DNA of 56,846 nt from a virus: the IMG/VR virus record IMGVR_UViG_3300010397_000012, positions 1-56,846 of that record. One strand, written 5' to 3'. Positions within the stretch are counted from its first letter, which is position 1, and every line of letters starts with the position of its first letter. Positions 688 to 39,776 of the stretch are shown in pieces. The position numbers and the translations under genes are program-made. The notes under the pieces are model-generated. The model was not told the origin of the DNA. It did not search any database and worked only from the letters and a program-made list of their open reading frames with translations.

Positions 688-1449
688 GTGCCGTCGATTC
701 TGATCCCTGGCCGTGCCGCAAGAGGGCAGAGACCGCCTTATGGTCGACCGCTCCTTAATCGTGACAGCCGTCAATTCGACGGCCTGCGGCGGCTGTGGTT
801 ATTCGGGACGGTGAATCCGAGCGAATACACGCTCGGACTTCCGGTAACGCTGAGCGGGCCTCCCGTGATGACGGCGATCGATCTCGGTGGCATGGCGGGA
901 TATTGCACGGGGGGAAACAGCTACGCCTACACGCAAGGCGAGGGCGTCTCGGCTAGCAATTGGAGCGTGCATCTCAGGTTTAAAGCGCTCGCGTGGCCGG
1001 GAGCCTTTACTACACTGTTTGACACCGCCAATCGCCACTTATCGCTGTTTATTGAGACGGCCGGGAACGTGAGCTTTCAGTCTGCCTCTCTGGGCGGACT
1101 GGACTCTGTGGCGACTGGATTTGCAGTGAACGTCTGGAACACCTTAACGGCGGTGATTGACGGCACGCGCACGTATGGCTACGTGAACGGGCGTCAGATC
1201 TCGTCGGTCGCAGTTCGGGGCGACCTCGGGCTCTCCGACGATTTGGTGTTTGGGGGAAACCCCAGTGGCGGCGGTTCGATGCCAGACATCGTGTATGAGC
1301 ACGCCAGGCTGTACGACCGATCACTGTCGCCAAATGAGGTCTGGACACTCGACGACCCCGCGACGCGCTGGGATCTCTACTGGGTGCCAGGGCGGCGCGT
1401 GTACTTCGATACCGGCGCGACATCGCAGCGTCGTTTCTATTTGGTGTGA
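688..1449 (+). CDS. LamG/concanavalin-like putative receptor-binding protein
   Basis: 253 residues, GTG start immediately after the upstream stop. Residues about 90-230 have the pattern of a LamG or concanavalin A-like jelly-roll: a WSVHLRFKA strand, a TLFDTANRHLSLFI segment, a WNTLTAVIDG strand, a VNGRQI turn and the closing ARLYDRSLSPNEV motif. Such domains bind carbohydrate and are common in phage adhesins. Lying between a beta-rich virion protein and the collagen-like fibre, it probably contacts host glycans. The domain call is by motif; the receptor role is inferred. Confidence 0.7.
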   Translation: MPSILIPGRAARGQRPPYGRPLLNRDSRQFDGLRRLWLFGTVNPSEYTLGLPVTLSGPPVMTAIDLGGMAGYCTGGNSYAYTQGEGVSASNWSVHLRFKALAWPGAFTTLFDTANRHLSLFIETAGNVSFQSASLGGLDSVATGFAVNVWNTLTAVIDGTRTYGYVNGRQISSVAVRGDLGLSDDLVFGGNPSGGGSMPDIVYEHARLYDRSLSPNEVWTLDDPATRWDLYWVPGRRVYFDTGATSQRRFYLV

Positions 1450-1460
1450 AGGGATAACCG

Positions 1461-4543
<3,083 letters not shown>

Positions 4544-4547
<4 letters not shown>

Positions 4548-5656
4548 ACATCCACCTTCTAAGTTTCCCCTCCGCGCCAACGACTGCGGCCTATTCGCTG
4601 TGTGGCTTCACGTCTGCGACGATCCGCTTCGCTAAGGTGCTGCGGCTGCTCGGGCACCACGTCACGCTCTACGCCTCTGAGCAGAACGAGGCACCATGCG
4701 CCGAGCTCGTGACGGTCATCACCAACGAGGAGCGTGAGACCATCCTCAACGGCGTGGAGTACCAGACGGCGCCGATGGTGCAGGCGTGCTATCCGCTGTG
4801 GGACTTGGCGAACAAACGCACGATCCGAGAGATCGCCAAACGCAAACAGCCGCACGACGTCATCTGCACGATCGGCGGGGCCGCCCATCAGCCTATTGCC
4901 GAGGCGCACACCGACCTGATGACGGTGGAGTTTTCGATCGGCTACTGCTCGAGCTTCGCCATCTATCGCGTGTACGAGTCGCACTACTGGCGTGGCGTGA
5001 CGCACGGGTTCCAGGTCCAGAAGCAGTTCAACGCCGAGGGCGGCGGTGACGGCCGGTTCTTTGACACAGTGATCCCGCTTTTCTTCGAGAAGGACGCCTT
5101 CCGGCCGCGCGTGAAGAAGGACCCGTTCGTCCTCTACGTCGGCCGACTCACGCCGAAGAAGGGCATCGCCATTGCGTGCGAGGCCGCCCACCGGGCTGGT
5201 GTGCCGTTGAAAATCATCGGCCACGGCGATCCGAAACTCATCACGCACGGCGCTGAGTATCTGGGAGCGCTGCCCGATTCTGAGCGCAACGAGTGGATGA
5301 GCCGTGCGACGGCGTTGCTGTGCCCGACGCTCTACGTCGAGCCGTTCGGTTCGGTAGCCGTCGAGGCGCAACTTGCGGCGACTCCAGTCATCAGCACGGA
5401 CTTCGGCGGCTTCGTGGAGACGGTGGAGCCCGGCAAAACTGGCTACCGCTGCAACTACCTCGGGGAGTTCGTCCAGGCGATCCACGACGCGCCATCGCTC
5501 GACCCGCGCTACATCCGCGCACGGGCGGAACGGCTGTACTCGCTTGAAGCCGTGGCACCGCAATACCAGGCGTACTTCGACCGGCTGTCGCTGCTGTGGG
5601 GTGATGGGTGGAACACGATCAACGCGACGTCGATGGCGATTGAGCAGGTGGCCTGA
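4544..5656 (+). CDS. GT4-type (GT-B fold) glycosyltransferase
   Basis: 370 residues, a normal size for GT4 enzymes. The C-terminal Rossmann half shows [12 protein letters not shown] (197-208) and the EX7E motif (E266-P-F-G-S-V-A-V-E274) that binds the nucleotide-sugar in retaining GT4 enzymes, followed by a PVISTDFGG loop. The N-terminal acceptor half is more divergent. Its ATG overlaps the stop of the collagen-like fibre gene (ATGA). That argues for co-production with the fibre and makes the Thr-rich collagen triplets a plausible acceptor; this last point is inference. Confidence 0.85.
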
Positions 5657-26040: not shown

Positions 26041-27312
26041 GTGAAAGGCCCCGCCAAGGTCAGCCACATCAAGGACTTGGTGCCGGACCCGCAGAACCGT
26101 CGGAAGCACAACCCCCGGAATATCGGCATGGTGGTGGACGCGCTGCACCAGGTGGGCGCGGCCCGGTCGATCGTCATCGACGAAGACAACGTGATTCTGG
26201 CAGGGAACGGGGTCACGGAAGCGGCGGCCGAGGCCGGGATCACGAAGGTGCGCGTTGTGGACGTGGCCGGCGACGAACTCGTGGCGGTGCGGCGGATCGG
26301 GCTGACGGTGGAGCAGAAGCGGACGCTGGCCATCGCGGACAACCGGGCGGCGGAACTGGCCGAGTGGGATTCCGAACAGTTGGCGGCGGACGTGGCGGAC
26401 GGGCTGAGCCTGCAGCCTTGGTTCTCGGACGAGGAGCAGGCCGCACTCCTGGCGAAGCATCTGCCACCCGTGGACGGGTTGACCGACCCAGACGCGGTGC
26501 CGGCCGAGCGGGCGACGGACATCAAGCCCGGAGACCTGTTCCAGTTAGGGCGGCATCGACTGCTGTGCGGTGACTGTACCGATCCGACTCTGGTGGAGCG
26601 GCTGATGGACGGGGCGCGCGCCGGGCTGATGAACACCGACCCGCCGTACGGGGTGACATACGCCAATGACGACAGGCCAAATCCCGGAGTAGCCAAACCC
26701 AGAGTAGCCAATGACACGCTAGAAGCCGAGAACCTTCAGCGGTTCCTTGAGTCGGCTTTCGGCATGGCGAAGCTCGTCGCGTTAGCCGAGAACGCGGCGT
26801 GGTACATGTGGCACGCCCATCTCACTCAGGGGTACTTTGCAGCAGCAGCAGCAGCAGCAGCAGCAGATGTGATCCTTCATCGCCAAATCATCTGGGTGAA
26901 GCCGGTCCTCCTACTCGGGCGCGGCCATTACCACTGGAAGCACGAGCCATGTTTCATGGGGTGGGTCGACGGCCACCAGCCGCCAGACTACGGCCTCGGC
27001 CAAGGTGAACGGACCCAGACGACTATCTGGGAAATCGCGCACGTCACGCAGGCTGAGCGGAAAGAGTTCAACCATTCCACGCCCAAGCCGGTCGGGCTGT
27101 TCACGATTCCCATCGTGAAGCACCTCCGCGGCGGGGAGTCCTGTTACGAGCCGTTCGCTGGAAGCGGGCCACAATTTATCGCCGCCGAGCAGCACGGCGT
27201 GGCCTGCCACGGGACAGAACTAGAGCCGCGGTTCTGCCAAGTCATCATCGACCGCTGGGAAGCCTTCACAGGACTTCATGTTGAGAAGCTCGGCGAGGTG
27301 GTCCCGGCATGA
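26041..27312 (+). CDS. ParB-like domain fused to an N6-adenine DNA methyltransferase
   Basis: 423 residues, GTG start. Residues about 5-110 are a ParB/Srx-type domain (IKDLVPDPQNRRKHNPRNIG, AGNGVTEAAAEAG, AIADNRAAELAEWD). Next comes LGRHRLLCGDCTD. Methyltransferase motif IV, DPPY, is at 200-203, and motif I, FAGSG, at 372-376 near the C-terminus. The order IV before I is that of the beta class. The product probably methylates phage DNA, giving protection from host restriction or marking packaging DNA. Its location between cos-like DNA and terminase is common for ParB-methyltransferases. A run of nine Ala (coded by a GCA repeat) lies around residues 267-275. Confidence 0.9.
   Translation: MKGPAKVSHIKDLVPDPQNRRKHNPRNIGMVVDALHQVGAARSIVIDEDNVILAGNGVTEAAAEAGITKVRVVDVAGDELVAVRRIGLTVEQKRTLAIADNRAAELAEWDSEQLAADVADGLSLQPWFSDEEQAALLAKHLPPVDGLTDPDAVPAERATDIKPGDLFQLGRHRLLCGDCTDPTLVERLMDGARAGLMNTDPPYGVTYANDDRPNPGVAKPRVANDTLEAENLQRFLESAFGMAKLVALAENAAWYMWHAHLTQGYFAAAAAAAAADVILHRQIIWVKPVLLLGRGHYHWKHEPCFMGWVDGHQPPDYGLGQGERTQTTIWEIAHVTQAERKEFNHSTPKPVGLFTIPIVKHLRGGESCYEPFAGSGPQFIAAEQHGVACHGTELEPRFCQVIIDRWEAFTGLHVEKLGEVVPA
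26839..26865 (+). repeat. (GCA)9 microsatellite inside the methyltransferase gene
   Basis: Nine uninterrupted GCA triplets code for nine alanines between GYF and DVILHR, in the segment between motifs IV and I where target-recognition sequences usually lie. Such pure triplet runs expand and contract by slippage without breaking the frame, so the Ala length may vary between isolates. Confidence 0.85.
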
Positions 27313-27794
27313 GAGGCCGCAAACCGACGCCGACCGTGATTCGGCTGGCCCGCGGCAACCCCGGCAAGCGGCCGATCAACCGAGACGAGCCGAAGCCCGG
27401 CGCGATGGACGAGGCGTGCCCGGACGAGCTCGCCGATCCGTCGGCGCAGGCCGAATGGGAAGCCCGGATCGTCCCGGCGATTCGGATCGGCCAGATCACG
27501 GCGGCGGATCGGTCCTTCGCCGTGGCCCATTGTCACTACTGGGCGACGTGGCGCTCCCAGTTGGCCGAGGCGTCGAAGCACCCGCACATTGTCGCGGTCG
27601 GCAAGGGCAAGTACCCGGCCCCGAATCCAGCGACCATCATGGCGAACAAGACCTTCCTGCTCTTGGCGAAGGTCGACGCCGAACTCGGCCTCACGCCGTC
27701 CTCAAGGCCGCGCGTGAAGGCCACCAACCAGGGCGGCCAGCAGCCGTCCCGTATCAATCGGTACCTAAGTGCCATCCCTGGCGGCAAAGCGTAA
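27309..27794 (+). CDS. terS: Terminase small subunit, P27 family
   Basis: 161 residues. The N-terminus RGRKPTPTVIRLARGNPGKR is the signature of P27-type small terminases. It is followed by helical segments (AQAEWEARIVPAIRIGQITA, MANKTFLLLAKVDAELGLTP) and a basic C-terminus. It recognises the packaging start on phage DNA and recruits the large subunit. Overlaps the methyltransferase stop upstream and the large subunit GTG downstream by 26 nt. Confidence 0.92.
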   Translation: MRGRKPTPTVIRLARGNPGKRPINRDEPKPGAMDEACPDELADPSAQAEWEARIVPAIRIGQITAADRSFAVAHCHYWATWRSQLAEASKHPHIVAVGKGKYPAPNPATIMANKTFLLLAKVDAELGLTPSSRPRVKATNQGGQQPSRINRYLSAIPGGKA

Positions 27795-29583
27795 GCGGGG
27801 CACGTCGAAGCGTCCGCCCGCGGTGCCGACGCCGTGGTGGGGTACTGGCCAGGCGCCGCATGTGCGCTGGCCCGGCACCACGATTGAGATCCCGGCCGTC
27901 TGGTCGGCGGTGAAACGCCGATGGGAGAGCCCGGACGGCCTGTACTATTTCGACCCAGACGCCGCGGAGTTTGCCGAGGGGTTCTTCCCGACGTTCCTCG
28001 AGCACCACATCGGGGAGTTTGACGGGAAGCCGTTCGACCTGATGCCCTACCAGCAGATGCTGGTGGTGCGTCCGCTGTTCGGCTGGAAGCACGCGGCCAC
28101 GGGCCTGCGGCGGTTCCAGAAGGTCTTCCTGGCCGTACCCAAGGGTAGCGGAAAGAGCCCGTTCGGTGCCGGCCTCGGCTTGTTTGGCGCGTTCTTCGAC
28201 GGAGAACCAGGGGCGGAAGTCTACGCCGTGGCGGCGGACCGCAAGCAGGCAGGGATCGTGTTCGACTCCGCCAAGGTGATGACGCAGCGGAACGAGCACC
28301 TGTCCGTCCGGTGCGAGGTGTTCCGCGACTCAATCAAGCTGATCAATTCGACCGAGTGTTTCCAGGTGTTGTCGTCGGACGCCAGTACAAAGCACGGATT
28401 CCGGCCGCACTTTATCATTTTCGACGAGTTCCACGCGCAACCGAACCGGGATCTCTTCGACGCGCTGTACCGCGGCATGGGCAAGCGCCGGCAGCCGGTG
28501 CTCGTGATGATCACGACGGCCGGTGATGACGACGAGTCGATCTGCTTTGAAGAGTGGGACTACGCCAGACGTGTCATCAGTGGCGGCGTGACGGACCCCT
28601 CGTACCTGCCGGTGATCTTTGAAGCCACAGCCGACGAGGACTGGACGCTCGAGTCCGTCCAACGGCGCGTCAATCCCGGCTACGGGATCACGATGCAGGC
28701 CGAGTACTTCCGGAGCGAGACAGCCGCGGCGATGGCCGAACCGCGGAAGCGGAACTCGTTCATCCAGTTGCACCTGAATCGGTGGGTGAACCAAGCGACG
28801 GCCTGGCTGCCGATCGAGTGGTGGGACGCCTGCGATGAGCCGATCGCCGACGACGCGACCTTGGCCGGGCTCCCGTGCGCCGGCGGCCTCGACCTCGCGC
28901 AGAAGATTGACCTGGCTTGTCTCACCCTCGTGTTTCGGATGCCGATCGCGCAGGCGCTGTCCGTCGAGGTGAAGGCGGAGGATGCCGCGGGCCAGGTGGT
29001 GACGAAGACGCAGGCGCTGAACTACCGGATCACCATCCTGCCGTTCTTCTGGATCCCCGAGAACACCATGCGGCAGCGAGAGAAAGAGGACGGGGTCCCG
29101 TATTCCGACTGGGTGCGGCGCGGCCTGGTCACGCCAACCGAGGGCGACATCATCGACTACACGCGGATCTTCCAGGACATCACGACGAAGATCCTGCCGC
29201 GGTTCCCTCGGTTGAAGCAGGGCGGTATCGGGTATGACCCGGCCTTCGCGACGGACATCGCCTCAAAGCTGCGGGATCTCGGAGGATGCAAGGTCGAGGA
29301 AGTCCTGCAGAACTACAAGTACATGTCGGAAGCCTGCTACGTCCTCGAGGCGCTGATCAAGGCCAAGCGCGTGACGCACGGCGGGCACCGGACGCTCAGG
29401 AACCACATCGAGAACGTGGCGATCAAGTCGGACGACGCTGGCCGGATCCGTCCGGTGAAACCGAAGAGCAAGAGCAAACACATTGACGGCGTCGTCGCGA
29501 CGCTGATGGCCGAGCGGATGCTGGCCACCGTGCCAGATCGGCCATCCTCGCCGCAGATCTTCTTCCTTGGAGGCAAACGATGA
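27769..29583 (+). CDS. terL: Terminase large subunit
   Basis: 604 residues, GTG start. The ATPase half has Walker A VPKGSGKS (123-130), Walker B FIIFDEFHA (215-223) and the coupling TTAG motif. The nuclease half carries GGLDLAQKIDLACLTLVF and later GIGYDPAFATDIASKL, then KSKHIDGVVATLMAERM, with aspartates spaced as in RNase H-fold terminase nucleases. The motor cuts concatemeric DNA and pumps it through the portal. Terminase_1/HK97-type by motif order. Confidence 0.95.
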   Translation: MPSLAAKRKRGTSKRPPAVPTPWWGTGQAPHVRWPGTTIEIPAVWSAVKRRWESPDGLYYFDPDAAEFAEGFFPTFLEHHIGEFDGKPFDLMPYQQMLVVRPLFGWKHAATGLRRFQKVFLAVPKGSGKSPFGAGLGLFGAFFDGEPGAEVYAVAADRKQAGIVFDSAKVMTQRNEHLSVRCEVFRDSIKLINSTECFQVLSSDASTKHGFRPHFIIFDEFHAQPNRDLFDALYRGMGKRRQPVLVMITTAGDDDESICFEEWDYARRVISGGVTDPSYLPVIFEATADEDWTLESVQRRVNPGYGITMQAEYFRSETAAAMAEPRKRNSFIQLHLNRWVNQATAWLPIEWWDACDEPIADDATLAGLPCAGGLDLAQKIDLACLTLVFRMPIAQALSVEVKAEDAAGQVVTKTQALNYRITILPFFWIPENTMRQREKEDGVPYSDWVRRGLVTPTEGDIIDYTRIFQDITTKILPRFPRLKQGGIGYDPAFATDIASKLRDLGGCKVEEVLQNYKYMSEACYVLEALIKAKRVTHGGHRTLRNHIENVAIKSDDAGRIRPVKPKSKSKHIDGVVATLMAERMLATVPDRPSSPQIFFLGGKR

Positions 29584-29840: not shown

Positions 29841-31829
29841 GTGTCGGACTCTGTCGCCTATACGTTCCTCAAGCTGTCGTCGATCGACGCTGAGGCGCGT
29901 GTCATCACCGGCATAGCGAGCACACCGACACCTGATCGCGATGGCGATGTCATCAACCCGAAGGGGTTGAGATTCAAGTCTCCACTGCCGCTGCTGCTCC
30001 ACCATGACACCCGCATGCCGGTTGGCACGGTGGTGTTCAAGAGCCCTCGGGAAAGCGGCATCGAGTTCGTTGCGCACATTCCGAAAGTCACCGAGCCAGG
30101 CATCGTTAAGGACCGCACAGACGAGGCGTTCCACAGCGCCAAGTACGGCCTGATTACCGGCGCATCAATCCGGTTTCTGGCGAGACGAGACAAGGTGCGC
30201 CAAAACAAGAGCGGCGGTCTCGACATCGACGAGGCGGAAGTGGTCGAGATGTCGATGGTCACAATTCCCTGTAATCCCGACGCCGGGATCTCTGGCGTCA
30301 AGTCCCTCTTCCACCCGGTCGACCCCGCGTCAGGGATTGAGACCGTTCCAAAACAACTTCACACGCCCGGCGTCACGGGCACGGTCGTACGGCTGGCGAA
30401 CAAGGACGCCTCCACGATGAAACCAATCGCAGAACGCAAGACGGCCTTCGTGGCCGAAAAGGCGGCCAAGGTCGCCAAGCTCAACGAGATCGCCGGCGAA
30501 GACGATGGGCAGACCATGTCGGCCGAGCAACAGACGCAGTTCGACACGCTGACCGACGAGATCAAGTCGCTCGATTCCCAGTTGGCGCGGCTCGAGACGC
30601 TCGAGCAGGTCAACAAGGCGAACGCGGTGACCGTGAACGGCGACAGCACGAAGTCGGCCTCGGAGTCGCGCGGATCGTCTGTGGTGTCCGTCTCGGCGCC
30701 CAAGTTGCCTCCCGGCATCGGGTTTGCGCGCGCGGTCAAGTCTCGGCTCGTGGCTCGCTTGGATGGCCGCAACGCCATCGAAGTCGCCAAGGAGATGTAC
30801 CCGAGCGACGACCGGTTGCATGCGCACCTCAATCACGACGTCACGGTCCGCAACGTCCTGATGCAGATGAAGGCGGCGGTTCCGGCGGCGACGACCACGC
30901 TCTCGGCCTGGGCGGGCGCGCTGGTCGATCCGACCAACCTGGCCGGCGAGTTCGTGGAGTTCCTCCGGCCTGAGACCATCATCGGCCGACTCAATCTTCG
31001 CGCGGTGCCGACGAACGTGCGACTGATTGAACAGACGCAGGGCGGCACGGGCTACTGGGTTGGTCAGGGCGCGCCGAAGCCGCTGACGTCCTTCGGCTAC
31101 GCGCCGATCACGCTCAGCCCCACGAAGGTGGCCTCGATCGCCGTAGCGACCGAGGAATCCCTGCGCTTCTCGACGCCCAGCTTGGACATGCTGATCCGAG
31201 ACGGTCTCCGTGGAGCGCTCGTCGAGCGTGTCGACCGCGACCTGCTCGATCCGGCTGAAGCGGGTTCGTCCAACGTGCAGCCGGCGTCGCTGACCCACGG
31301 CTTGGTGGCCCTGTCATCGGCAGGTACCAGCGCCGACAACATCCGCACCGACATCGCGAAGCTCATCCGGGCGTTGCGGTCCGCCAACCTCCGCGGGCGC
31401 ATCGCGATTGTGTTGCCGGATTCCTTGCTGACCGCGATGGCCTGGATGACCAACTCGCTGGGGCAGCCGGAGTTCCCGGGCGTCACGGGCGAGGGCGGCA
31501 CGTTCAACGGCATCCGGTTCATCGGGTCCGAGTACGTGGCCAACTCGAGCGGGGCTGGCAACATGGTGATCGCGATCGCCGAGAACGAAGTCTTCATCTC
31601 TGATGACGGCGGCGTGACGGTCGACGCGTCGCGTGAAGCGACCCTGCAGATGCTCGACAACCCGACGAACAACTCGGCCACCGCGACGGCGACCACCGGC
31701 GTCTCGATGTGGCAGACCAACTCCGTGGCGTTCCGCGCGGAGTGGTTCATCAACTGGCAGAAGCGCCGCTCGACGGCCGTCGCGTACATGGACGACGTCA
31801 ACTGGGGCAGCGTCGGCAGCCCGAGCTAG
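29841..31829 (+). CDS. Prohead protease fused to HK97-fold major capsid protein
   Basis: 662 residues, GTG start. Residues 1-160 are an HK97-type serine protease: LLLHHDTRMPVG (His 54/55), GASIRF (Ser 109) and EVVEMSMVTIPCNP (Glu 136). About 190-280 is a coiled-coil delta (scaffold) domain (FVAEKAAKVAKLNEIAGEDD, LTDEIKSLDSQLARLETLEQ). The rest is the capsid domain (LRPETIIGRLNLRAVPTNVR, TQGGTGYWVGQGAPK, VATEESLRFSTPSLD, WFINWQKRRSTAVAYMDDVN). Separate protease and capsid genes are usual; here one polypeptide must be cut to free the subunit. A strong terminator follows. Confidence 0.92.
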   Translation: MSDSVAYTFLKLSSIDAEARVITGIASTPTPDRDGDVINPKGLRFKSPLPLLLHHDTRMPVGTVVFKSPRESGIEFVAHIPKVTEPGIVKDRTDEAFHSAKYGLITGASIRFLARRDKVRQNKSGGLDIDEAEVVEMSMVTIPCNPDAGISGVKSLFHPVDPASGIETVPKQLHTPGVTGTVVRLANKDASTMKPIAERKTAFVAEKAAKVAKLNEIAGEDDGQTMSAEQQTQFDTLTDEIKSLDSQLARLETLEQVNKANAVTVNGDSTKSASESRGSSVVSVSAPKLPPGIGFARAVKSRLVARLDGRNAIEVAKEMYPSDDRLHAHLNHDVTVRNVLMQMKAAVPAATTTLSAWAGALVDPTNLAGEFVEFLRPETIIGRLNLRAVPTNVRLIEQTQGGTGYWVGQGAPKPLTSFGYAPITLSPTKVASIAVATEESLRFSTPSLDMLIRDGLRGALVERVDRDLLDPAEAGSSNVQPASLTHGLVALSSAGTSADNIRTDIAKLIRALRSANLRGRIAIVLPDSLLTAMAWMTNSLGQPEFPGVTGEGGTFNGIRFIGSEYVANSSGAGNMVIAIAENEVFISDDGGVTVDASREATLQMLDNPTNNSATATATTGVSMWQTNSVAFRAEWFINWQKRRSTAVAYMDDVNWGSVGSPS

Positions 31830-31902: not shown

Positions 31903-32127
31903 TTGGTCGACGTCGCCGTAACCCGAGCATTTATCCACGAGGGCCGCGCGTTCCAGGTGGGTGACACGATGACCGTGGCGCCCATTACGGCCGCGGTCCT
32001 ACATCGTCGTGGCGTGGTGTCGCTGACCAAGCTGGCCCACGTCACCAAGCAGATCGCCAGTGCCGTCATTGAGGAGCCGCGTCCACGGCGCCGCACCTAT
32101 CGCCGCAGGGCTTTGGTGGCGGAGTGA
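31903..32127 (+). CDS. Small protein between capsid and portal, 74 aa
   Basis: TTG start, GACGGGGG upstream. VTRAFIHEGRAFQVGDTMTV is a short SH3-like strand set, followed by a basic C-terminus (EEPRPRRRTYRRRALVAE). Possibly a head accessory protein. Its stop overlaps the portal GTG. Confidence 0.5.
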   Translation: MVDVAVTRAFIHEGRAFQVGDTMTVAPITAAVLHRRGVVSLTKLAHVTKQIASAVIEEPRPRRRTYRRRALVAE

Positions 32128-33506
32128 CCGTCTTCGGCCTGAGCATCACGCGCCAGAAGGCCGGCCCTCCGCCTGGCACCGTCTTTTCGACGCCGAGTGC
32201 CGGCCGAGGCGGCTGGTTCCGCGTGCTGGAGCCGTTCACCGGCGCCTGGCAGCGGAACATCGAGCAGACGCCTGAGACGCTGCTGGCGTTTCACGCCGTC
32301 TATGCCTGCGTCACGTTGATCGCCTCGGACATCGCCAAACTGCGGATCAAGCTCGTGGAGCAGGACCGCGACGGCATCTGGAACGAAACCACCAACAGCG
32401 CCTACTCGCCGGTCTTGCGGCGCCCGAACGCCTACCAAGATCGCATCCAGTTCATCACGCACTGGATGCTCTCAAAGCTGATCCACGGCAATACCTACGT
32501 CCTCCTGAACCGCGATCAGAACAGGGTGGTGCGCGAGATGCACGTCCTGGATCCGACGCGCGTGCAGGTCAGGGTGGCGCCCAACGGCGACATCTACTAC
32601 GCGCTGGGCCAGGACAACCTCTCTGGTGTCGACGGGGCCTCCACGACCGTGCCGGCGTCCGAAATTATCCACGACCGCATGCCCGGCCTGTATCACCCGT
32701 TGTGCGGGAGCTCGCCGTTGACGGCGTGTTATCTGCCGGCGCTGCAGGCGCTCCGTGGCCAGCAGAACTCGGCTGACACGCTGGCGAACGGCGCGCGCCC
32801 TGGAGGCGTGCTCACGAGCGCCGCGCCGTTGTCGGACGAGCAGATCGCGCAGATTCAGACGGAATGGCAGGCCAACTACGGCGGCGACAACCAGGGCCGC
32901 GTCGCGGTGCTGACGGCCGACCTGAAATACCAAGACCTCAAGCTCATCAGTAACGTCGACATGCAACTGATCGAGCAATTGAAGTTGTCCGGCGAGAACG
33001 TGTGCTCCGCGTTTCACGTGCCGGGCTTCAAGGTCGGGATCGGCGCGATGCCGGCCTACAACTCGGTGGAAGCGGCCAACATCCTCTACTACTCGGACTG
33101 CCTGCAGTACCACTACGAGTCGATTGAGTCGCTGCTGGATTTCGGCCTGAGCACCGGGAACACGCTCGGGACGGAGTTCGACCTCGAGTCGTTGCTGCGC
33201 ATGGACACGTCGTCGCGGTCAACGGCCGCCAAGGAAGCGGTGAACGGCGGCATGTCCTACAACGAAGCTCGGCGCCGGTTCTTCGATCTCGGCCCGGTCA
33301 AGGGCGGCGAATCGCCCCTCGCGCAGCAGCAGAACTACAGTCTGGAAGCGCTCGCCAAGCGGGACGCCAAGGCGGATCCGTTTGAAACAGCGACAAGCAA
33401 GCCTGACACGCCCGCGCCTGACGCGATGCCAGCGGACGCCGCGAACAAGTCGGCCCTGCTCGTGCCGCGCGCCCTCCTGGCCCTTCAGAAAGCGATGGCC
33501 GCGTGA
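32124..33506 (+). CDS. Portal protein, HK97 family
   Basis: 460 residues, GTG start. Conserved blocks: AFHAVYACVTLIASDIAKLR, VLRRPNAYQDRIQFITHWM, LSKLIHGNTYVLLNRDQNR, EIIHDRMPG and the stem LMSE-type region near VCSAFHVPGFKVG. The C-terminal tail is Pro/Ala-rich. The dodecameric portal is the DNA entry channel at one vertex and the docking site for terminase and connectors. Confidence 0.93.
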   Translation: MTVFGLSITRQKAGPPPGTVFSTPSAGRGGWFRVLEPFTGAWQRNIEQTPETLLAFHAVYACVTLIASDIAKLRIKLVEQDRDGIWNETTNSAYSPVLRRPNAYQDRIQFITHWMLSKLIHGNTYVLLNRDQNRVVREMHVLDPTRVQVRVAPNGDIYYALGQDNLSGVDGASTTVPASEIIHDRMPGLYHPLCGSSPLTACYLPALQALRGQQNSADTLANGARPGGVLTSAAPLSDEQIAQIQTEWQANYGGDNQGRVAVLTADLKYQDLKLISNVDMQLIEQLKLSGENVCSAFHVPGFKVGIGAMPAYNSVEAANILYYSDCLQYHYESIESLLDFGLSTGNTLGTEFDLESLLRMDTSSRSTAAKEAVNGGMSYNEARRRFFDLGPVKGGESPLAQQQNYSLEALAKRDAKADPFETATSKPDTPAPDAMPADAANKSALLVPRALLALQKAMAA

Positions 33507-34405
33507 CTGAGGCGGAATTGACGGCCGTGGCGGAAGGCTTCGCGCCAGTGGTGCGGCAGGCGATCGCGCAGGCGACCGAGCCGCTACTGGCCCGCATTGC
33601 CGTGCTCGAGCAGCGAGAGTCGACGCCTGGCGAGCGTGGGCCCGCGGGTGAGAAGGGCCTTGACGGGGCACCCGGGAAGGACGCGCCGGCGCCAGACACG
33701 GACGTGATTGCGATGAAGGTTGCGGCGCTCCTGCCGGTGCCTCGTGACGGCCGAGAAGGGGCGCCTGGCAAGGACGCGCCGTCCATGGACCTCGTGGCCC
33801 TGGCGAAGATGGTCGTGGACCTGATCCCAACGCCGAAAGATGGCGCGAACGGCCGAGACGGCACCGACGTCGACATGGGCGCGGTCAAGGCCATGGTCAC
33901 AGAAGCGGTGGCGGCCATCCCCGTGCCGAAAGACGGAACCAATGGCCAGGACGGCAAGGACGGCACCAGCGTGGATCCCGCGTTCGTGTCCGCCGAGATC
34001 GCCAAGGCGGTCGCCGCGATCCCAGTCCCAAAGGACGGCGCTCCTGGCCAAGACGGCCAGGACGGCCTGACCTTCAGCATCGAAGACCTCATGACGGCGT
34101 CGTTTGACGGCGAGCGGACCACGACGCTGGTCTTCGGCCGCGGCGAGAAGCGTCTCGAAGTTCCGATGCGGTTTCAGGTGCCGCTGTACTTCGACGTGTG
34201 GAGTACCGCCAAGTCGTATCAGGCCGGCGACTGCGTGACCTACGGCGGGTCGATGTGGATCGCCAAGGCCGACACAACCGAGCGACCGGGCGATGGTGCA
34301 ACGTCCTGGCGCCTCTGCGTGAAAGCGGGCCGTGAAGGGAAGTCGGTCGCCGGTCCGGTGGGCCCCCGTGGGCCCCAAGGGGAGCGAGGGCCGGCCAAGT
34401 GGTGA
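33503..34405 (+). CDS. Collagen-like virion protein with a carbohydrate-binding module
   Basis: 300 residues. An N-terminal helix is followed by Gly-rich triplets (PGERGPAGEKGLDGAPGKD), then spacer helices with repeated PVPKDG-x-x-G-x-DG units. Residues about 195-285 contain VPLYFDVWSTAKSYQAGDCV and SMWIAKADTTERPGDGATSW, a CBM5/12-like chitin-binding fold. A short second collagen run (PVGPRGPQGERGP) ends the protein. It lies next to the portal and ahead of the glycan genes, so it may be a head fibre or decoration protein that reaches into polysaccharide. Confidence 0.8.
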   Translation: MTEAELTAVAEGFAPVVRQAIAQATEPLLARIAVLEQRESTPGERGPAGEKGLDGAPGKDAPAPDTDVIAMKVAALLPVPRDGREGAPGKDAPSMDLVALAKMVVDLIPTPKDGANGRDGTDVDMGAVKAMVTEAVAAIPVPKDGTNGQDGKDGTSVDPAFVSAEIAKAVAAIPVPKDGAPGQDGQDGLTFSIEDLMTASFDGERTTTLVFGRGEKRLEVPMRFQVPLYFDVWSTAKSYQAGDCVTYGGSMWIAKADTTERPGDGATSWRLCVKAGREGKSVAGPVGPRGPQGERGPAKW

Positions 34406-35034
34406 CCGTGCCGAGGCTCTGGCCGGGCGAGACGGTGGCCTGCCTGGCGACCGGGCCGAGCTTGACGCAGGCCGATGTGGACCTCTGCCGAGACAAGGTG
34501 CGGGTGATTGCCGTCAACGACGCACATCGCCTCGCGCCGTGGGCCGACGTCCTCTACTCGAGCGACCGCGCCTGGTGGCCGAAATACAACGGCGTGCCGA
34601 CATTCGCCGGCCGTCGCTACGGGGTCGGGACCGGCGTCGGCAAGCGTAACCCCTTCGGCAAACTGCCGCAGATCACCGTCTTGCGGAACGCCGGGCCGGA
34701 CGGGATCGAGACGTCACCGGACGGTCTCCGCACGGGCCGCAATTCTGGCTATGCCGCGATCAACCTGGCCGTGCACTTCGGCGCCGCCAAGATCGTCCTA
34801 CTCGGCTACAACCTGAGCTACCGCAACGGTCGCGCGCACTTCTTTGGCAACCATCCCTCAGGCCTGACCCAGACCGAGGCGCTGTATCCGTCGTTCCGGA
34901 AGCACTTCGAGACGATGGTGGCGCCGCTGAAGCAACTCGGCGTCGAAGTGATCAACGCGACCGAGCACACGTCGTTGACCTGTTTTCCGTGCCGTCCGGT
35001 ACGCGAGGCGTTGGGCCTCGAGGTGGCGGCATGA
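34399..35034 (+). CDS. DUF115/sialyltransferase-like glycan-transfer protein
   Basis: 211 residues from GTG 34399; GTG 34402 is equally possible. GETVACLATGPSLTQADVDL, then RVIAVNDAHRLAPWADVLYS, GRNSGYAAINLAVHFGAAKI and VLLGYNLS, with a late HFFGNHP, follow the DUF115-like/sialyltransferase-like phage proteins that move sugars. First gene of the seven-gene cassette. The acceptor is unknown. Confidence 0.6.
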   Translation: MVTVPRLWPGETVACLATGPSLTQADVDLCRDKVRVIAVNDAHRLAPWADVLYSSDRAWWPKYNGVPTFAGRRYGVGTGVGKRNPFGKLPQITVLRNAGPDGIETSPDGLRTGRNSGYAAINLAVHFGAAKIVLLGYNLSYRNGRAHFFGNHPSGLTQTEALYPSFRKHFETMVAPLKQLGVEVINATEHTSLTCFPCRPVREALGLEVAA

Positions 35035-35681
35035 TGCGCGTCGCCGTGTGCCTCCAGACGGCCGACCGGAGTGACTACACGGCCCGGACGTTGGCCAGTT
35101 TCGCCGCGCATAACGATCTGAAGCGGTTCGCCTTGTTCCACGGAGACGACGCATCAGCGACGACCGAGAACCGGGACCTGGCGCACGCCTACGGGTTCAA
35201 GACGCTGGTGCGAACCAAGGCGCGCATCGGCTGCCTGCCGCTCAGGACGGCCCTGATCGTCGCCGCCGCACGCCACGCCGACTGGATCTTGCTCCTCGAG
35301 AACGACATTGATTCCGTGCGGCCGTTTCCGTGGGCGCTGCTCCACCACGTCGCGAGTATCAAGTGGCTCTATACGCTGCGCCTGTTTGGGGCCTTCAAGG
35401 GGCCGAACCAGACCGACCCGTGCCACATCGTCAACAAGTGGAAGCCCGAAAAGCCCGTGAAATGGAAGGCGCTCGGCAAGTCTCCTGAGCCGGCCGAATA
35501 CGGGCTGATCCACTGGAGCGCGCAGCCGTCGGTGACGCGCACACGGCCCCTGGTCGACCTGCACTGCTCAGGCATCCGCGAACTCCGCCTCAAGACGGCG
35601 CGTGTGGTCGACAACGTCATGGTGCACATCGGCGACGTGCGGACGCACCAAGCTCGCAGCCGAGAGGCGGTCGCATGTTGA
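35031..35681 (+). CDS. GT-A-type putative glycosyltransferase
   Basis: 216 residues; ATGATG start overlapping the upstream stop. The N-terminus MRVAVCLQTADRSDYTARTL resembles a GT-A core start. ADWILLLENDIDSVRPFPWA holds an acidic cluster where DxD would be (NDID). The C-terminal half is specific. Second gene of the cassette. Weaker evidence than the other transferases. Confidence 0.55.
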   Translation: MMRVAVCLQTADRSDYTARTLASFAAHNDLKRFALFHGDDASATTENRDLAHAYGFKTLVRTKARIGCLPLRTALIVAAARHADWILLLENDIDSVRPFPWALLHHVASIKWLYTLRLFGAFKGPNQTDPCHIVNKWKPEKPVKWKALGKSPEPAEYGLIHWSAQPSVTRTRPLVDLHCSGIRELRLKTARVVDNVMVHIGDVRTHQARSREAVAC

Positions 35682-36394
35682 CCGTGGCGACGTTCCGATG
35701 GAAGCCGCCCACGGGGTATCGGTCGGTCTTCGGGCCTGAAACCGTCATCGTGTTGCGCGACATGATTCGGCGCAACTATGCGCAGCCGCACCGGTTCGTG
35801 TGCGTCACGGACGATCCGGCCGGGCTGAAGGATGTCGAGACGATTCCCCTGTGGGACGACTTCGCCAGCGTGCCCAGCCCGCACGGTCGAGGTAACCCCA
35901 GCTGCTATCGACGCCTGAAGCTGTTCGATCCGACGATCGCCTCGCTGCTCGGGCCGCGCATCGTGTCGATGGACCTGGACACCGTGATCGTGGGTGACCT
36001 GGCGCCGATCTTTAACCGGACGGAAGACTTCGTCATCTGGGGCCAGGCCGACCAGGCGAAGCAGTGGTACAACGGCTCGCTCTTCATGTTGACGGCGGGC
36101 GCTCGGCCGCGCGTCTGGAGCGAGTTCAACCCGAAGACGTCGCCGCTTCTGGCCAAACGGGCGGGCAAGTTCGGGTCGGACCAGGGGTGGATCTCCTACT
36201 GCCTCGGGCCGAAAGAGGCCACGTTCGGGCAACAGGACGGCGTGTATTCGTTCCGCGTGCACGTCCAGCCGAAAGGCGATGACTACCTCCCAGAGAACGC
36301 GCGGATCATCAACTTCCATGGCCACGTCGACCCGTGGCACTGGCGCGCACAGCGCCTGGACTGGGTGCGTAAGCACTACGGGGTGGCGGCATGA
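35675..36394 (+). CDS. GT8-like glycosyltransferase
   Basis: 239 residues. The metal-binding motif DLDTVIVGDLAP is near residue 100, preceded by KLFDPTIASLLGPRIVSM. NGSLFMLTAGARPRVW and a C-terminal INFHGHVDPWHW complete the fold. Similar in layout to the product at 37751 (YLDLDTLIVGDLAP), so the two are probably paralogues with different sugar or acceptor choice. Coupled to neighbours by short overlaps. Confidence 0.75.
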   Translation: MLTVATFRWKPPTGYRSVFGPETVIVLRDMIRRNYAQPHRFVCVTDDPAGLKDVETIPLWDDFASVPSPHGRGNPSCYRRLKLFDPTIASLLGPRIVSMDLDTVIVGDLAPIFNRTEDFVIWGQADQAKQWYNGSLFMLTAGARPRVWSEFNPKTSPLLAKRAGKFGSDQGWISYCLGPKEATFGQQDGVYSFRVHVQPKGDDYLPENARIINFHGHVDPWHWRAQRLDWVRKHYGVAA

Positions 36395-37002
36395 TCCCGC
36401 TCACGCCGGAACAGTACGCGGTGAAGTACGCGACGCGCGACCTCCCGACGTTGCAGCGGGCCGCTGGACTTGCCCCTCAGCAGCGCGTTGCGGTGCAGGC
36501 TGGCGGCAATCTGGGTGTGTGGCCGAAGTGGTTGGGAGACACGTTCGAGACGGTCTACTGCTTTGAGCCGTCGCCGGCGTGCTTCCAGGAGCTCGTGCGC
36601 CATGCCGCCCAACCGAACGTCATCAAGATCCAAGCGGCACTCGGAGACACGCACGGCCTGGTGGCGGTGAGCGATGCGCGCGACGACGGGAAGCCGAGCC
36701 ATCCAGGCGTGACGCACGTGTCTGGCGCCGGCGTGATCCCGACCCTCCGCGTGGACGACTTGGCCCTGGAGCACTGCGATCTGCTGTCGCTGGACCTCGA
36801 GGGGTATGAACTCTTCGCGTTACGCGGCGCCGTTGAGACCGTGGAGCGATGCCGTCCGGTGATGCTGATCGAGATCAACCAGCACAGCGATCGGTACGGC
36901 GTCCCACCGGATGACGTGCGCGACTGGCTGACGGCACAGGGCTATCAGTTTGTGGCCCGCGTGCACTCGGACGAGATCTGGACGCCGGAGGGTCAGGAGT
37001 AG
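36391..37002 (+). CDS. FkbM-family sugar O-methyltransferase
   Basis: 203 residues. VAVQAGGNLGVWPKWLGDTF is the SAM-binding glycine loop, TVYCFEPSPACFQELVRHAA the acidic ribose loop, and CDLLSLDLEGYELFALRGAV the FkbM signature (DLL-x-x-D-x-EG-x-E-x-x-x-L-x-G). FkbM enzymes methylate hydroxyls of sugars and glycans. In the cassette it would cap or modify the glycan made by the transferases. Confidence 0.85.
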   Translation: MIPLTPEQYAVKYATRDLPTLQRAAGLAPQQRVAVQAGGNLGVWPKWLGDTFETVYCFEPSPACFQELVRHAAQPNVIKIQAALGDTHGLVAVSDARDDGKPSHPGVTHVSGAGVIPTLRVDDLALEHCDLLSLDLEGYELFALRGAVETVERCRPVMLIEINQHSDRYGVPPDDVRDWLTAQGYQFVARVHSDEIWTPEGQE

Positions 37003-37004
37003 CT

Positions 37005-37754
37005 ATGGGACTCGACCCACGACCACAGACCACGACGGCCGAGCAGTACGCGCAGATCTTCGCGTCCGAGCGCGCCAAGGCGTATCCGTCTGTCGACGCC
37101 TTCGAGGCGAAGATGGGATTCAGTCTCGACCGCGATCGGCTCGAGTCGGCCGCCCGCGTGCTCAGTTGCCCGTTCAAGGCCGCGGCGCCGAACTGGCAGC
37201 ACGGGCGAGTGATTTACGCGGCCGTGCGATCCCGCATCCAGGCGATGAATGCGGCCGGATGGTCCACCGGCTACGCCCATGTCGACATTGGCACGGCGAA
37301 GGGCTTCTCCGCGCTCTGCGCGCTGTGGGCGATTGAGGACAGCCAGGCTGAGCACGCGAGCGTGGAGTCGGTCGATGTCCTGCCGCAGTCGGCGCTTGTG
37401 CGTCGAAATACGGTTGCGGAAGTGGATCGTCTCTGCACGTTGTCTGACGTGCTGGCCCCATGGCCAGAGACGGCCCGCATTAGGTTTCACGAGTCCACCG
37501 GGATCGACTTCCTCAAGCGGTCAGACGCACACGTGCACTCAGCCTTCGTGGACGGCAAGCATTCGACGGAGGCGGTCTCGGCGGAGTGGAAGGCGCTCGC
37601 GAAGCGCCAAGCCTCGGGCGACATTGCGATCTTCGACGACGTCCAGATGCCGGCGGTGGCGGCAGGACTGAAGGGCGCTGACTACTGCTACACGTTCGAA
37701 CGTCTCGACCTCGGATCGGTGAATCGGTCGTACGTGATCGGGGTGCGCCGATGA
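37005..37754 (+). CDS. Class I SAM-dependent methyltransferase
   Basis: 249 residues. AHVDIGTAKGFSALCALWAI is the glycine-rich SAM loop, and VESVDVLPQS the acidic end of strand 2. Later HSAFVDGKHSTEAVSAEWKA and GDIAIFDDVQMPAV match the Methyltransf_24-type pattern (FVDG-x-H, D-D). Lying between FkbM and a GT8-like gene, it is probably a second glycan-modifying methyltransferase. Confidence 0.75.
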   Translation: MGLDPRPQTTTAEQYAQIFASERAKAYPSVDAFEAKMGFSLDRDRLESAARVLSCPFKAAAPNWQHGRVIYAAVRSRIQAMNAAGWSTGYAHVDIGTAKGFSALCALWAIEDSQAEHASVESVDVLPQSALVRRNTVAEVDRLCTLSDVLAPWPETARIRFHESTGIDFLKRSDAHVHSAFVDGKHSTEAVSAEWKALAKRQASGDIAIFDDVQMPAVAAGLKGADYCYTFERLDLGSVNRSYVIGVRR

Positions 37755-38410
37755 CGACAGTGGCCTGCGTGTGGGTCAAGGGGAACGTGCCCTATACCGC
37801 GGAGTATGTCGCCAACCTCTCAGCCATGGTGCGGCGGCACATCGACCGTCCGTATCGGATGGTCTGCCTGACGGATCGGCCTGACGAGGTGCCGCATGGC
37901 ATCGACCCGATCGCCGTGCCGAATCTGAGCCCGCTGCCAGGGTGGTGGTCGAAGCTCGAACTGTTCAAACCAGCCCATCGCCTGACGGGGCGAGTCTTGT
38001 ACCTCGATCTGGACACCTTGATCGTGGGCGACCTCGCGCCGGTCCTGGACTGGCCGGCGCCGTTCGCCATCGTGCCGGATGACACCTCGTCCTTCCAGCC
38101 GCGGCCACCGTATCGCGTCGTGAAGCGGTTCAACTCGTCGGTCATGGTGTTTGACGGCGGGATCTACCCGGACCTGTTCGAAGGGTGGCGCGGAGCCGTC
38201 AAGGCCGGACTGTGGGGGGACCAAGACCTCATCGGAGAACGGTATCCCTCGATCGACACGATGCCGGCAGCGTGGTTCCCTCGATTGTCGACGTTCAGCC
38301 AGGCCGGCACGATTCCCACCGGCGCGAGGGTGGTGCTGTCGAAGAAGCCGAAGAACCACGTCGCCGCGGCGCAGTGGCCCTGGTTTGACGCGATCTGGAG
38401 GGCCGCCTGA
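37751..38410 (+). CDS. GT8-like glycosyltransferase
   Basis: 219 residues. LTGRVLYLDLDTLIVGDLAP carries the DxD motif. KRFNSSVMVFDGGIYPDLFE and GDQDLIGERYPSID follow as in GT8-like enzymes. Paralogous in layout to the 35675 product. Coupled to both neighbours by overlap. Confidence 0.75.
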   Translation: MTTVACVWVKGNVPYTAEYVANLSAMVRRHIDRPYRMVCLTDRPDEVPHGIDPIAVPNLSPLPGWWSKLELFKPAHRLTGRVLYLDLDTLIVGDLAPVLDWPAPFAIVPDDTSSFQPRPPYRVVKRFNSSVMVFDGGIYPDLFEGWRGAVKAGLWGDQDLIGERYPSIDTMPAAWFPRLSTFSQAGTIPTGARVVLSKKPKNHVAAAQWPWFDAIWRAA

Positions 38411-39150
38411 TGGCCCTCTGGTGCCGTGATCTCAAGACTGTGTCGGTCCCAATCGGCGACACGCCGAAGGCCGTCACGCTCGTGTTGCCGTACTACGAGA
38501 ACCCGCAGTTCTTCCAGCGGCAGATCGCCGAGTGGCGGAACTATGCGGCCGACGTGGCGCCGTTCGTCTCGGTGATCGTCGTGGACGACGGCTCGCCCAC
38601 GCCGGCGGTCTTGCCAGAAGCGCCACCGGTGTCGATGCGGCTCTTTCGGATCGGCGTGGACGTCCGGTGGAACTGGCTGGCCGCCCGTAACATCGGCGCG
38701 CACCATGCCGCGCCAGGCTGGCTGCTCATGACTGACATGGATCATGTGGTGCCCAACGACACCATGCGCGCATGTGTCTACGGGTCGCACGATCCAGCGG
38801 TGGCCTACGGGTTCGGTCGGGTGGAGCATACGGGCGCGGCGATCCACCCACACTCGGCGTCGTTCTTCCTGACGCGCGACACCTTCTGGCGCACCGGCGG
38901 GTACGACGAGACGCTGTCCGGCCACTACGGCACCGACGGCGACTTCCGTCGGCGTCTGGCGCCTGTGGCCCGGATGCAGATTCAGGACCGGCCGCTCGTG
39001 CGCCATGAGTACCAGGGCGACTCCTCAACCGTGCGGTACCTGCGTAAACAGCCCGAAGACGCGGCAGTGAAGCGTCTCGTGGCGCAACGCGGTCGGGCTT
39101 GGGCGCCGCGCGTGCTGTCGTTCCCCTATCAGGAGGTGGCGGCGTCATGA
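38410..39150 (+). CDS. GT2-family glycosyltransferase
   Basis: 246 residues. KAVTLVLPYYENPQFFQRQI and SVIVVDDGSP give the GT2 nucleotide pocket, WLLMTDMDHVVPNDTM the DxD-type metal site, and TFWRTGGYDETLSGHYGTDG the acceptor ED-like region. Last gene of the cassette. Its stop overlaps the head-tail connector gene, so the cassette is cotranslated with virion assembly genes. Confidence 0.85.
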   Translation: MALWCRDLKTVSVPIGDTPKAVTLVLPYYENPQFFQRQIAEWRNYAADVAPFVSVIVVDDGSPTPAVLPEAPPVSMRLFRIGVDVRWNWLAARNIGAHHAAPGWLLMTDMDHVVPNDTMRACVYGSHDPAVAYGFGRVEHTGAAIHPHSASFFLTRDTFWRTGGYDETLSGHYGTDGDFRRRLAPVARMQIQDRPLVRHEYQGDSSTVRYLRKQPEDAAVKRLVAQRGRAWAPRVLSFPYQEVAAS

Positions 39151-39776
39151 CGCGCGCCGCGGTCACCCTGTGGGATGACGGCGTGCTGTGGAGCACGCGC
39201 CGGACCGTCGCGCCCACGCAACTCCCGATGAGGACGGAGTACGTCTACGACCAGGTGCTCAGAGGCGCCTGCGAGGACGCGGACGAGGAGTTCGTGACCA
39301 ACGCCATTCGCGCGTTCGCGGACGACGCCGAGCATGAGACGCAGCGGGCCCTGATGCCGCAGACCTGGGAGATGGTCCTCGATGGCTTCCCAGCCAGCGG
39401 ACAGATCGTGCTCCAGCGCCCGCCGCTCATCGCGGTGACGTCGCTGCAGTACTACGACGCCGATAACGAACTCCAGGATTTGGCCGTCTCTCCTGCGGAG
39501 TTCGCCGTGGTGCCGTCGGGCCGATACACGAAGGCGATCGTGCGGCCGATTGACGGCGAGAGCTTCCCGAGCACCTACGGCCGTCCTGATGCCGTGACGG
39601 TGACCTACGAGGCTGGCTACGAGGACGTGAACGATCCCGAGCTCGCCAAGATCAACATCGGGATCGCCCTGGCTGTGGGCGAGTTCTACAAGCTGCGGTC
39701 GCTGTCGGTGCAGGGGCTGAACTACACGCCGGCCGTGCTGCAGACGAGCCGGTTTTGGACGAAGGTGCGCGGATGA
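39147..39776 (+). CDS. Head-tail connector protein (gp6-like)
   Basis: 209 residues. VTNAIRAFADDAEHETQRAL in the N-terminal half, QRPPLIAVTSLQYYDADNEL in the middle and VTVTYEAGYEDVNDPELAKI near the end follow the HK97 gp6 / PhiE125 gp8 connector layout. It forms the ring under the portal. ATGA overlap with the GT2 gene. Confidence 0.8.
   Translation: MTRAAVTLWDDGVLWSTRRTVAPTQLPMRTEYVYDQVLRGACEDADEEFVTNAIRAFADDAEHETQRALMPQTWEMVLDGFPASGQIVLQRPPLIAVTSLQYYDADNELQDLAVSPAEFAVVPSGRYTKAIVRPIDGESFPSTYGRPDAVTVTYEAGYEDVNDPELAKINIGIALAVGEFYKLRSLSVQGLNYTPAVLQTSRFWTKVRG

What the first reader, a model, noticed from the sequence alone, without database searches (positions are those of the whole stretch)
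34399..39150. Seven-gene glycan cassette inside the head module
A DUF115-like protein, a GT-A-type protein, two GT8-like enzymes, a GT2 enzyme, an FkbM methyltransferase and a second methyltransferase sit in one overlapping block between portal/collagen-like protein and the head-tail connector. Location in the structural operon suggests glycosylation of virion proteins rather than host surface conversion. Methylated sugars could mask the capsid or aid binding.
Basis: partly seen in the sequence, partly recalled or inferred. Interest (0 to 1): 0.78.

Follow-up and report, generated by a model that had tools for sequence, protein, structure and literature searches.

The report
Phage sugar-coating locus in neck genes
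This virus of bacteria carries seven sugar-adding and sugar-methylating enzyme genes inside the gene block that builds its own head and tail joint; over a hundred related virus fragments carry swapped versions of the same set there, so it most likely coats its own particles with a custom, changeable sugar tag.

Summary
Window 34399-39150 holds seven intact, translationally coupled genes: five glycosyltransferase-type proteins and two methyltransferases, between a collagen-like protein and the head-tail connector. The identical seven in the same order occur in six other viral contigs. Reshuffled subsets occur at the head-tail (neck) locus of about 120 non-redundant contigs, with compact "empty" sites in relatives. 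Relatives of the first gene lie in the head/neck operons of Pseudomonas phages D3 and PAJU2 and Tetraselmis virus S20, and in phage P1 (pmgO/pmgP, beside GT8-like pmgQ, all non-essential).
The first gene (DUF115) models at pLDDT 94. Its best solved match is the catalytic domain of the flagellin glycosyltransferase Maf (Z 15.7, 187 residues), then sialyltransferase CstII. There are no membrane segments, sugar-nucleotide synthesis genes or integrase, and dN/dS is 0.02-0.12. I read it as a hypervariable, Maf-headed cassette for cytoplasmic glycosylation of a virion protein (confidence 0.65).
The acceptor and the sugars are unproven. The portal-linked collagen-like protein is a candidate: cassette carriers have more Gly-X-Y triplets (phylogenetically corrected p about 0.005-0.008, n = 68), but three carriers have none. 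A second pair, a GPT-repeat fibre followed by a GT4 gene, lies elsewhere in the window.

The parts
32124..33506 (+). portal protein, upstream flank
   Evidence: PF04860 3.8e-77
33503..34405 (+). collagen-like portal-linked protein with short Gly-X-Y runs and a CBM5/12-like segment; candidate acceptor
   Evidence: phrog_1289 6e-31, phrog_2271 4e-14; CBM_5_12 8e-5, below its cut-off; 19 GXY triplets
34399..35034 (+). A: stand-alone Maf-catalytic-domain-like (DUF115/GT42-like) glycosyltransferase, proposed first transferase
   Evidence: phrog_4603 9e-43; AlphaFold2 pLDDT 94.3; best structural match 5mu5 Maf Z 15.7, CstII Z 12.1
35034..35681 (+). B: GT-A-fold glycosyltransferase, no Pfam family
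   Evidence: AlphaFold2 pLDDT 89.6; matches to B4GALNT1, GlcNAc-transferase I, TarS, Z 15.5-17.7; invariant END motif
35675..36394 (+). C: GT8-like glycosyltransferase
   Evidence: phrog_1962 2.7e-16; DLD motif invariant; weak glycogenin match
36391..37002 (+). D: FkbM-family methyltransferase
   Evidence: PF05050 1.5e-17
37005..37754 (+). E: class I methyltransferase (Methyltransf_24)
   Evidence: PF13578 5.7e-11
37751..38410 (+). F: second GT8-like glycosyltransferase, relative of P1 PmgQ
   Evidence: phrog_1962 7.2e-20; P1 pmgQ by tblastn; DLD motif invariant
38410..39150 (+). G: GT2-family glycosyltransferase
   Evidence: PF10111 9.3e-9, PF00535 4.3e-7; TDMDH motif nearly invariant; PDB match GmaR flagellin glycosyltransferase 1.2e-7
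39147..39776 (+). gp6-like head-tail connector (Ad1), downstream flank, start overlaps stop of G by 4 bases
   Evidence: phrog_442 4.5e-17; junction

Best explanation
The block is a modular virion-glycosylation cassette expressed with the late structural genes. In the host cytoplasm, A (a free-standing Maf-type catalytic domain) puts the first sugar onto Ser/Thr of a newly made virion protein before or during assembly. I infer the donor to be a host CMP-activated ulosonic acid; CMP-Kdo is the one that nearly every Gram-negative host makes. B, C, F and G extend the chain with host nucleotide sugars, and D and E methylate it. The gene set downstream of A is swapped between phages, so each phage displays its own glycan. 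The likeliest carriers are neck or head proteins, with the portal-linked collagen-like protein the first candidate. Shown: gene content, fold of A and B, intact motifs, purifying selection, conserved location, modularity, empty sites. Inferred: acceptor, donor, order of reactions, biological benefit.
For: Maf catalytic domain is the best structural match of A, well above the rest. Maf glycosylates flagellin in the cytoplasm before export (PMC4065374), and one Maf accepts CMP-Neu5Ac and CMP-Kdo (PMC11339370). Listed hosts of A-bearing cultured phages are Gram-negative, apart from three records whose host field names the alga Tetraselmis. No membrane segments. Neck location in 55/57 A-seeded loci, all genes on one strand; identical seven-gene order in six contigs. 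Replacement genes in other phages are again glycosyltransferases (GT-D, GT1_2/CgeB-like, GT2, GT9, TOD1-like) and methyltransferases. Related genes in head/neck operons of D3, PAJU2, S20 and beside P1 pmgQ. Empty sites of 0.26-1.05 kb in relatives. Carriers have more Gly-X-Y triplets in the collagen-like protein: n = 40 PGLS p 0.0012; n = 68 PGLS p 0.005-0.008, at least 9 label changes on the portal tree. dN/dS 0.02-0.12.
Against: No mass or staining data exist for any of these virions as far as I could find. A shared fold does not fix function: A also resembles the pterin kinase MptE (Z 11.5). Three cassette carriers have no Gly-X-Y triplets in the neighbouring protein, only about 10% of carrier triplets bear Ser/Thr, and the second, independent sample had just three empty sites and showed no significant difference on its own (p 0.37). 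Some A-type genes lie beside tail-fibre genes (CcrSC) or between lysis and terminase genes (phiNP), so the neck protein cannot be the universal acceptor. An actinobacterial MAG contig (L112) carries two A-like genes, which would not fit a Kdo donor if it is not a misbinned phage.
Confidence: 0.65

Rival explanations
1. The cassette modifies a host surface glycan (LPS/O-antigen conversion), for example to exclude other phages or to free progeny from debris.
For: Glycosyltransferase and methyltransferase mixtures are common in surface-polysaccharide loci; the fold of A also matches the lipooligosaccharide sialyltransferase CstII.
Against: No flippase, no membrane-anchored bactoprenol transferase, no membrane segment in any of the seven proteins; no integrase in the record, whereas seroconversion is a lysogen trait; genes are welded into the late neck operon and keep that place across many contigs.
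Confidence: 0.13
2. The enzymes hypermodify the phage DNA (glycosylated and methylated bases).
For: Phage glycosyltransferases can decorate DNA (reviewed in PMC12619734).
Against: No thymidylate-synthase-like hydroxymethylase in the record with a search that rang in controls; no Tet/JBP match, though that control did not ring; the genes sit with late structural genes instead of replication genes; A resembles protein and sugar transferases.
Confidence: 0.05
3. The cassette glycosylates the collagen-repeat tail fibre at 1461-4547 instead of a neck protein, extending sugars started by the adjacent GT4 gene.
For: That fibre has 120 Gly-X-Y triplets, 71 GPT and 19 GAT, overlapped by a GT4 gene (phrog_3408); a similar collagen/glycosyltransferase neighbourhood occurs in cyanophage ACG-2014f.
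Against: The GT4 gene is absent from 35 other cassette-bearing records, some of which are fragments, so the two glycan modules are not linked in evolution as far as this sample shows.
Confidence: 0.12
4. The enzymes modify a host protein (counter-defence or takeover) and location in the late operon is incidental.
For: Protein glycosyltransferase folds would allow it.
Against: Late, structural-operon placement conserved across many phages, hypervariable gene content as expected of a displayed antigen, and P1 homologues dispensable for growth (PMC10695390).
Confidence: 0.05

Closest known systems
Maf (motility-associated factor) flagellin glycosyltransferases, PF01973/DUF115, PDB 5mu5
   Same: Same catalytic-domain fold over 187 residues; weak PF01973 sequence match; expected to act on protein in the cytoplasm.
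   Different: Phage A is about 210 residues and lacks the N- and C-terminal domains of Maf; it lies with capsid and neck genes, not flagellar genes.
Mycobacteriophage virion glycosylation (Freeman et al. 2023, cited through PMC12619734)
   Same: Phage-encoded glycosyltransferases glycosylating capsid and tail-tube subunits.
   Different: Different enzyme families as far as recalled (not tested), and no multigene, swapped cassette in the neck operon is described in the text I could read.
Phage P1 pmgO/pmgP/pmgQ, D3 orf7/orf12/orf13, PAJU2 gp10-gp12
   Same: DUF115 gene plus GT8-like gene (P1) or methyltransferase (D3, PAJU2); D3 and PAJU2 genes lie in the head-neck operon.
   Different: Smaller sets; annotated only as morphogenetic, structural or hypothetical.
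Tetraselmis viridis virus S20 neck region (TVGG_00041-00049)
   Same: Homologues of A, B, C, D and G between capsid protein and head-closure gene; GT8-like F also hits there by tblastn.
   Different: Different order, two A-type genes, and a GT-D gene.
Gtr O-antigen conversion cassettes (gtrA/gtrB/gtrC)
   Same: Phage-borne glycosylation genes.
   Different: No flippase or membrane glycosyltransferase here.
BclA exosporium collagen-like glycoprotein (known from general knowledge)
   Same: GPT-repeat collagen next to a glycosyltransferase resembles the window's fibre at 1461-4547.
   Different: That is a separate module in the window; the cassette's neighbour has few GXT triplets.

Membership tests
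Maf/DUF115 protein glycosyltransferases | Maf_flag10/PF01973 catalytic domain | tested here: inconclusive
   PF01973 E 1e-5 but below its cut-off (25.9 vs 34.6 bits); structure matches 5mu5 with Z 15.7 over 187 residues
Maf/DUF115 protein glycosyltransferases | three-domain architecture of Maf with N- and C-terminal domains | tested here: not met
   A is 211 residues and covers only residues 262-512 of the 632-residue 5mu5 chain
Maf/DUF115 protein glycosyltransferases | transfer of CMP-nonulosonic acid or Kdo to Ser/Thr of a protein | not testable with these tools
   needs enzyme assay or glycoproteomics
phage virion glycosylation systems | glycan on a virion protein dependent on a phage glycosyltransferase | not testable with these tools
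   no virion available; inferred from location and folds
phage virion glycosylation systems | soluble enzymes encoded with virion genes | tested here: met
   no membrane segment, maximum 19-residue hydropathy 0.77-1.48; coupled to neck genes
Gtr seroconversion cassette | GtrA flippase and membrane-anchored GtrB | tested here: not met
   no membrane segments in A-G
DNA hypermodification | hydroxymethylpyrimidine synthesis by a ThyA-like enzyme | tested here: not met
   PF00303 absent, control rang in 9 genomes
DNA hypermodification | TET/JBP dioxygenase | tested here: inconclusive
   no match, but the control search rang nowhere
GT8 family (C, F) | GT8 fold with DxD motif | tested here: inconclusive
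   DxD motif invariant; Pfam GT8 only 0.26 for F; PHROG glycosyltransferase match
FkbM methyltransferase (D) | PF05050 domain above cut-off | tested here: met
   64.7 bits vs 22.7
GT2 family (G) | GT2 domain above cut-off and metal-binding motif | tested here: met
   PF10111 35.6 vs 27.3 bits, PF00535 30.4 vs 23.3; TDMDH motif, both Asp invariant in 17 homologues

The most novel reading that the evidence does not exclude
Tailed phages of Gram-negative bacteria share a 'virion serotype locus' in the neck operon: a fixed Maf-type first transferase that primes virion proteins with host Kdo (or another CMP-sugar), followed by an exchangeable set of glycosyltransferases and methyltransferases, which makes phage surface glycans as variable as bacterial O-antigens. 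Collagen-like neck fibres would be a main carrier.
Probability: 0.25. Interest if true: 0.85.

Novelty: new variant of a known kind. Interest (0 to 1): 0.64.

Why it matters
Virion glycosylation in tailed phages is known in few cases. A widespread, modular, Maf-headed locus in the neck operon would explain the long-standing 'putative morphogenetic' genes pmgO/pmgP/pmgQ of P1 and orf7 of D3, and would make it directly testable in laboratory phages whether phage particles carry variable glycans. If so, glycans would bear on phage stability, adsorption, clearance by animals and phage-phage competition.

Tried and rejected
Chance ORFs: rejected by conserved order, motifs and dN/dS. Horizontal island with odd composition: GC does not differ. 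FkbM match to TALE repeat structures in the PDB: a repeat-driven artefact, short stretch, ignored. A as CbeA antitoxin (PF06154): E 0.02, below cut-off. Sequence profile of A against the PDB gave nothing; Foldseek alone gave only weak hits, headed by thiamin pyrophosphokinase, with sialyltransferase ST8SiaIII among them, and the second-look aligner was needed. Linkage of the GPT fibre + GT4 pair with the cassette: not found in 35 records. Prolyl/lysyl hydroxylase in the cassette (as for eukaryotic or viral collagen): none among the 14 Pfam families of 60 variable genes. Nearest cultured phages by DNA gave only terminase/portal-region fragments. A paper on DUF115 in phages: none in the held library; papers on sialyltransferase genes in phage head-tail regions: none.
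Full report
What is there. In order: A 34399-35034, DUF115/phrog_4603; B 35034-35681, GT-A fold; C 35675-36394, GT8-like; D 36391-37002, FkbM methyltransferase; E 37005-37754, Methyltransf_24; F 37751-38410, GT8-like; G 38410-39150, GT2. Upstream lie terminase (27769-29583), a protease-capsid fusion (29841-31829, phrog_617), portal and a collagen-like portal-linked protein; downstream connector, head closure, tail terminator, major tail protein and tape measure. The junctions from the collagen-like gene to the connector overlap by 1-7 bases, with one 2-base gap; no promoter-like site and no + strand terminator-like site falls inside; GC is that of the phage. The block is therefore transcribed, as far as sequence can tell, with the late neck genes.

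Conservation. G and C lead to related contigs in IMG/VR, A to at least 589 matching stretches. After removal of overlaps, 146 loci remain, 128 of them viral. Six other contigs hold exactly A-B-C-D-E-F-G in that order, 22 hold at least six of the seven families, and 55 of 57 loci found only through A contain head, neck or tail genes, all on the same strand. The common plan is terminase, capsid, portal, collagen-like protein, (connector), A, variable genes, (connector), head closure, tail terminator, major tail protein. Sixty unassigned ORFs from the variable part and its edges match only glycosyltransferase (GT-D, GT1_2/CgeB-like, GT2, GT9, TOD1/MUCI70-like) and methyltransferase families in Pfam. 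Relatives found through the portal include 18 compact empty sites with 0.26-1.05 kb between collagen-like and next neck/tail gene. On a portal tree of 68 taxa the cassette label changes at least nine times, fewer than in shuffles (mean 18), so it is inherited but repeatedly gained or lost.

Function of the parts. A was modelled from 56 homologues (pLDDT 94.3). Among solved chains its best match is Maf from Magnetospirillum (5mu5, Z 15.7, 187 aligned, residues 262-512), then CstII sialyltransferases (Z 11-12) and the pterin kinase MptE (Z 11.5). PMC11339370 states that the central Maf_flag10 domain resembles CstII and that a Maf uses CMP-Neu5Ac and CMP-Kdo; PMC4065374 shows Maf acts in the cytoplasm. 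B was modelled from 11 homologues (pLDDT 89.6) and is a GT-A enzyme (Z 17.7 to B4GALNT1). C and F carry invariant DLD motifs; the two Asp of the TDMDH motif of G are invariant. G's best PDB profile match is the flagellin glycosyltransferase GmaR (1.2e-7); C and F show only weak matches to glycogenin and a Skp1 glycosyltransferase. None of the seven has a membrane segment. In the closest trio of relatives dN/dS is 0.02-0.12. The record has no integrase, no ThyA-like enzyme and no CMP-sugar synthetase, so sugar donors must come from the host.

Acceptor. The portal-linked collagen-like protein is the direct upstream neighbour, among recognised genes, in 65 of 85 loci with enough upstream sequence, but it is near universal in this portal family with or without a cassette, so presence alone says nothing. 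Its number of Gly-X-Y triplets does differ: 22 carriers 9-71, 18 empty sites 0-26, Mann-Whitney p 1.6e-5, PGLS slope 23 triplets, p 0.0012. After adding a second scan the combined sample (47 vs 21) keeps the difference (PGLS p 0.005-0.008), but the added part alone has only three empty sites and is not significant (p 0.37), and three carriers have no triplets. I take this as moderate support for the collagen-like protein as one carrier, not as proof. The window's own copy has 19 triplets, three with Ser/Thr.

Known relatives. A-type genes occur in 76 phage records; the listed hosts are Gram-negative bacteria, apart from records with no host and three naming the alga Tetraselmis. In D3 the gene lies between major head protein and Ad1, with a methyltransferase gene (orf13) further on; in PAJU2 it follows Hc1 with two neighbours, one a methyltransferase; in S20 a nine-gene stretch lies between capsid and Hc1; in P1 pmgO and pmgP are both DUF115-like and pmgQ is GT8-like. 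P1 pmgO, pmgP and pmgQ are non-essential for lytic growth (PMC10695390), as expected of a decoration system. In Caulobacter phage CcrSC the gene follows tail genes; in phiNP it lies between lysis and terminase genes, so the acceptor may differ among phages.

Judgement. Virion-protein glycosylation by a Maf-type first transferase with variable extension and methylation explains gene content, solubility, late-operon location, modularity and dispensability. Host-surface conversion and DNA modification each fail a tested feature. Donor (CMP-Kdo), acceptor and benefit remain inference. Phage virion glycosylation as such is known (Freeman et al. 2023, via PMC12619734); the hypervariable Maf-headed neck locus is, as far as the open-access library shows, undescribed, hence 'new variant of a known kind'.

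Noticed in passing
window 1461-5656: A 1028-aa collagen-repeat tail-fibre-like protein with 120 Gly-X-Y triplets (71 GPT, 19 GAT) is overlapped by a GT4-family glycosyltransferase gene (phrog_3408); it looks like a phage counterpart of BclA-type glycosylated collagen, separate from the cassette.
   Followed up: partly
L274 3506-8994 (NC_026927.1 13505-18993): Cyanophage ACG-2014f has a collagen-repeat protein, a homologue of the window's GT4 gene and a 2OG-Fe(II) oxygenase within 5.5 kb in its tail-fibre region, suggesting collagen hydroxylation plus glycosylation in a phage.
   Followed up: no
L025 3593-4776: P1 pmgO and pmgP both match DUF115/MptE-like, so P1 carries tandem Maf-like domains next to the GT8-like pmgQ.
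   Followed up: partly
window 29841-31829: Protease-major capsid fusion protein of the PAJU2 type (phrog_617).
   Followed up: no
window 688-1449: Concanavalin A-like lectin (Laminin_G_3) protein beside the collagen fibre, possible receptor binding.
   Followed up: no
L109, L105, L111: Cassette genes in Sphingopyxis, Bradyrhizobium and Sphingomonas genome contigs; L109 shows a prophage with terminase-capsid-portal-collagen-G-C-Hc1 order.
   Followed up: partly
window 26041-27312: DNA N6/N4 methylase gene just upstream of the packaging genes.
   Followed up: no
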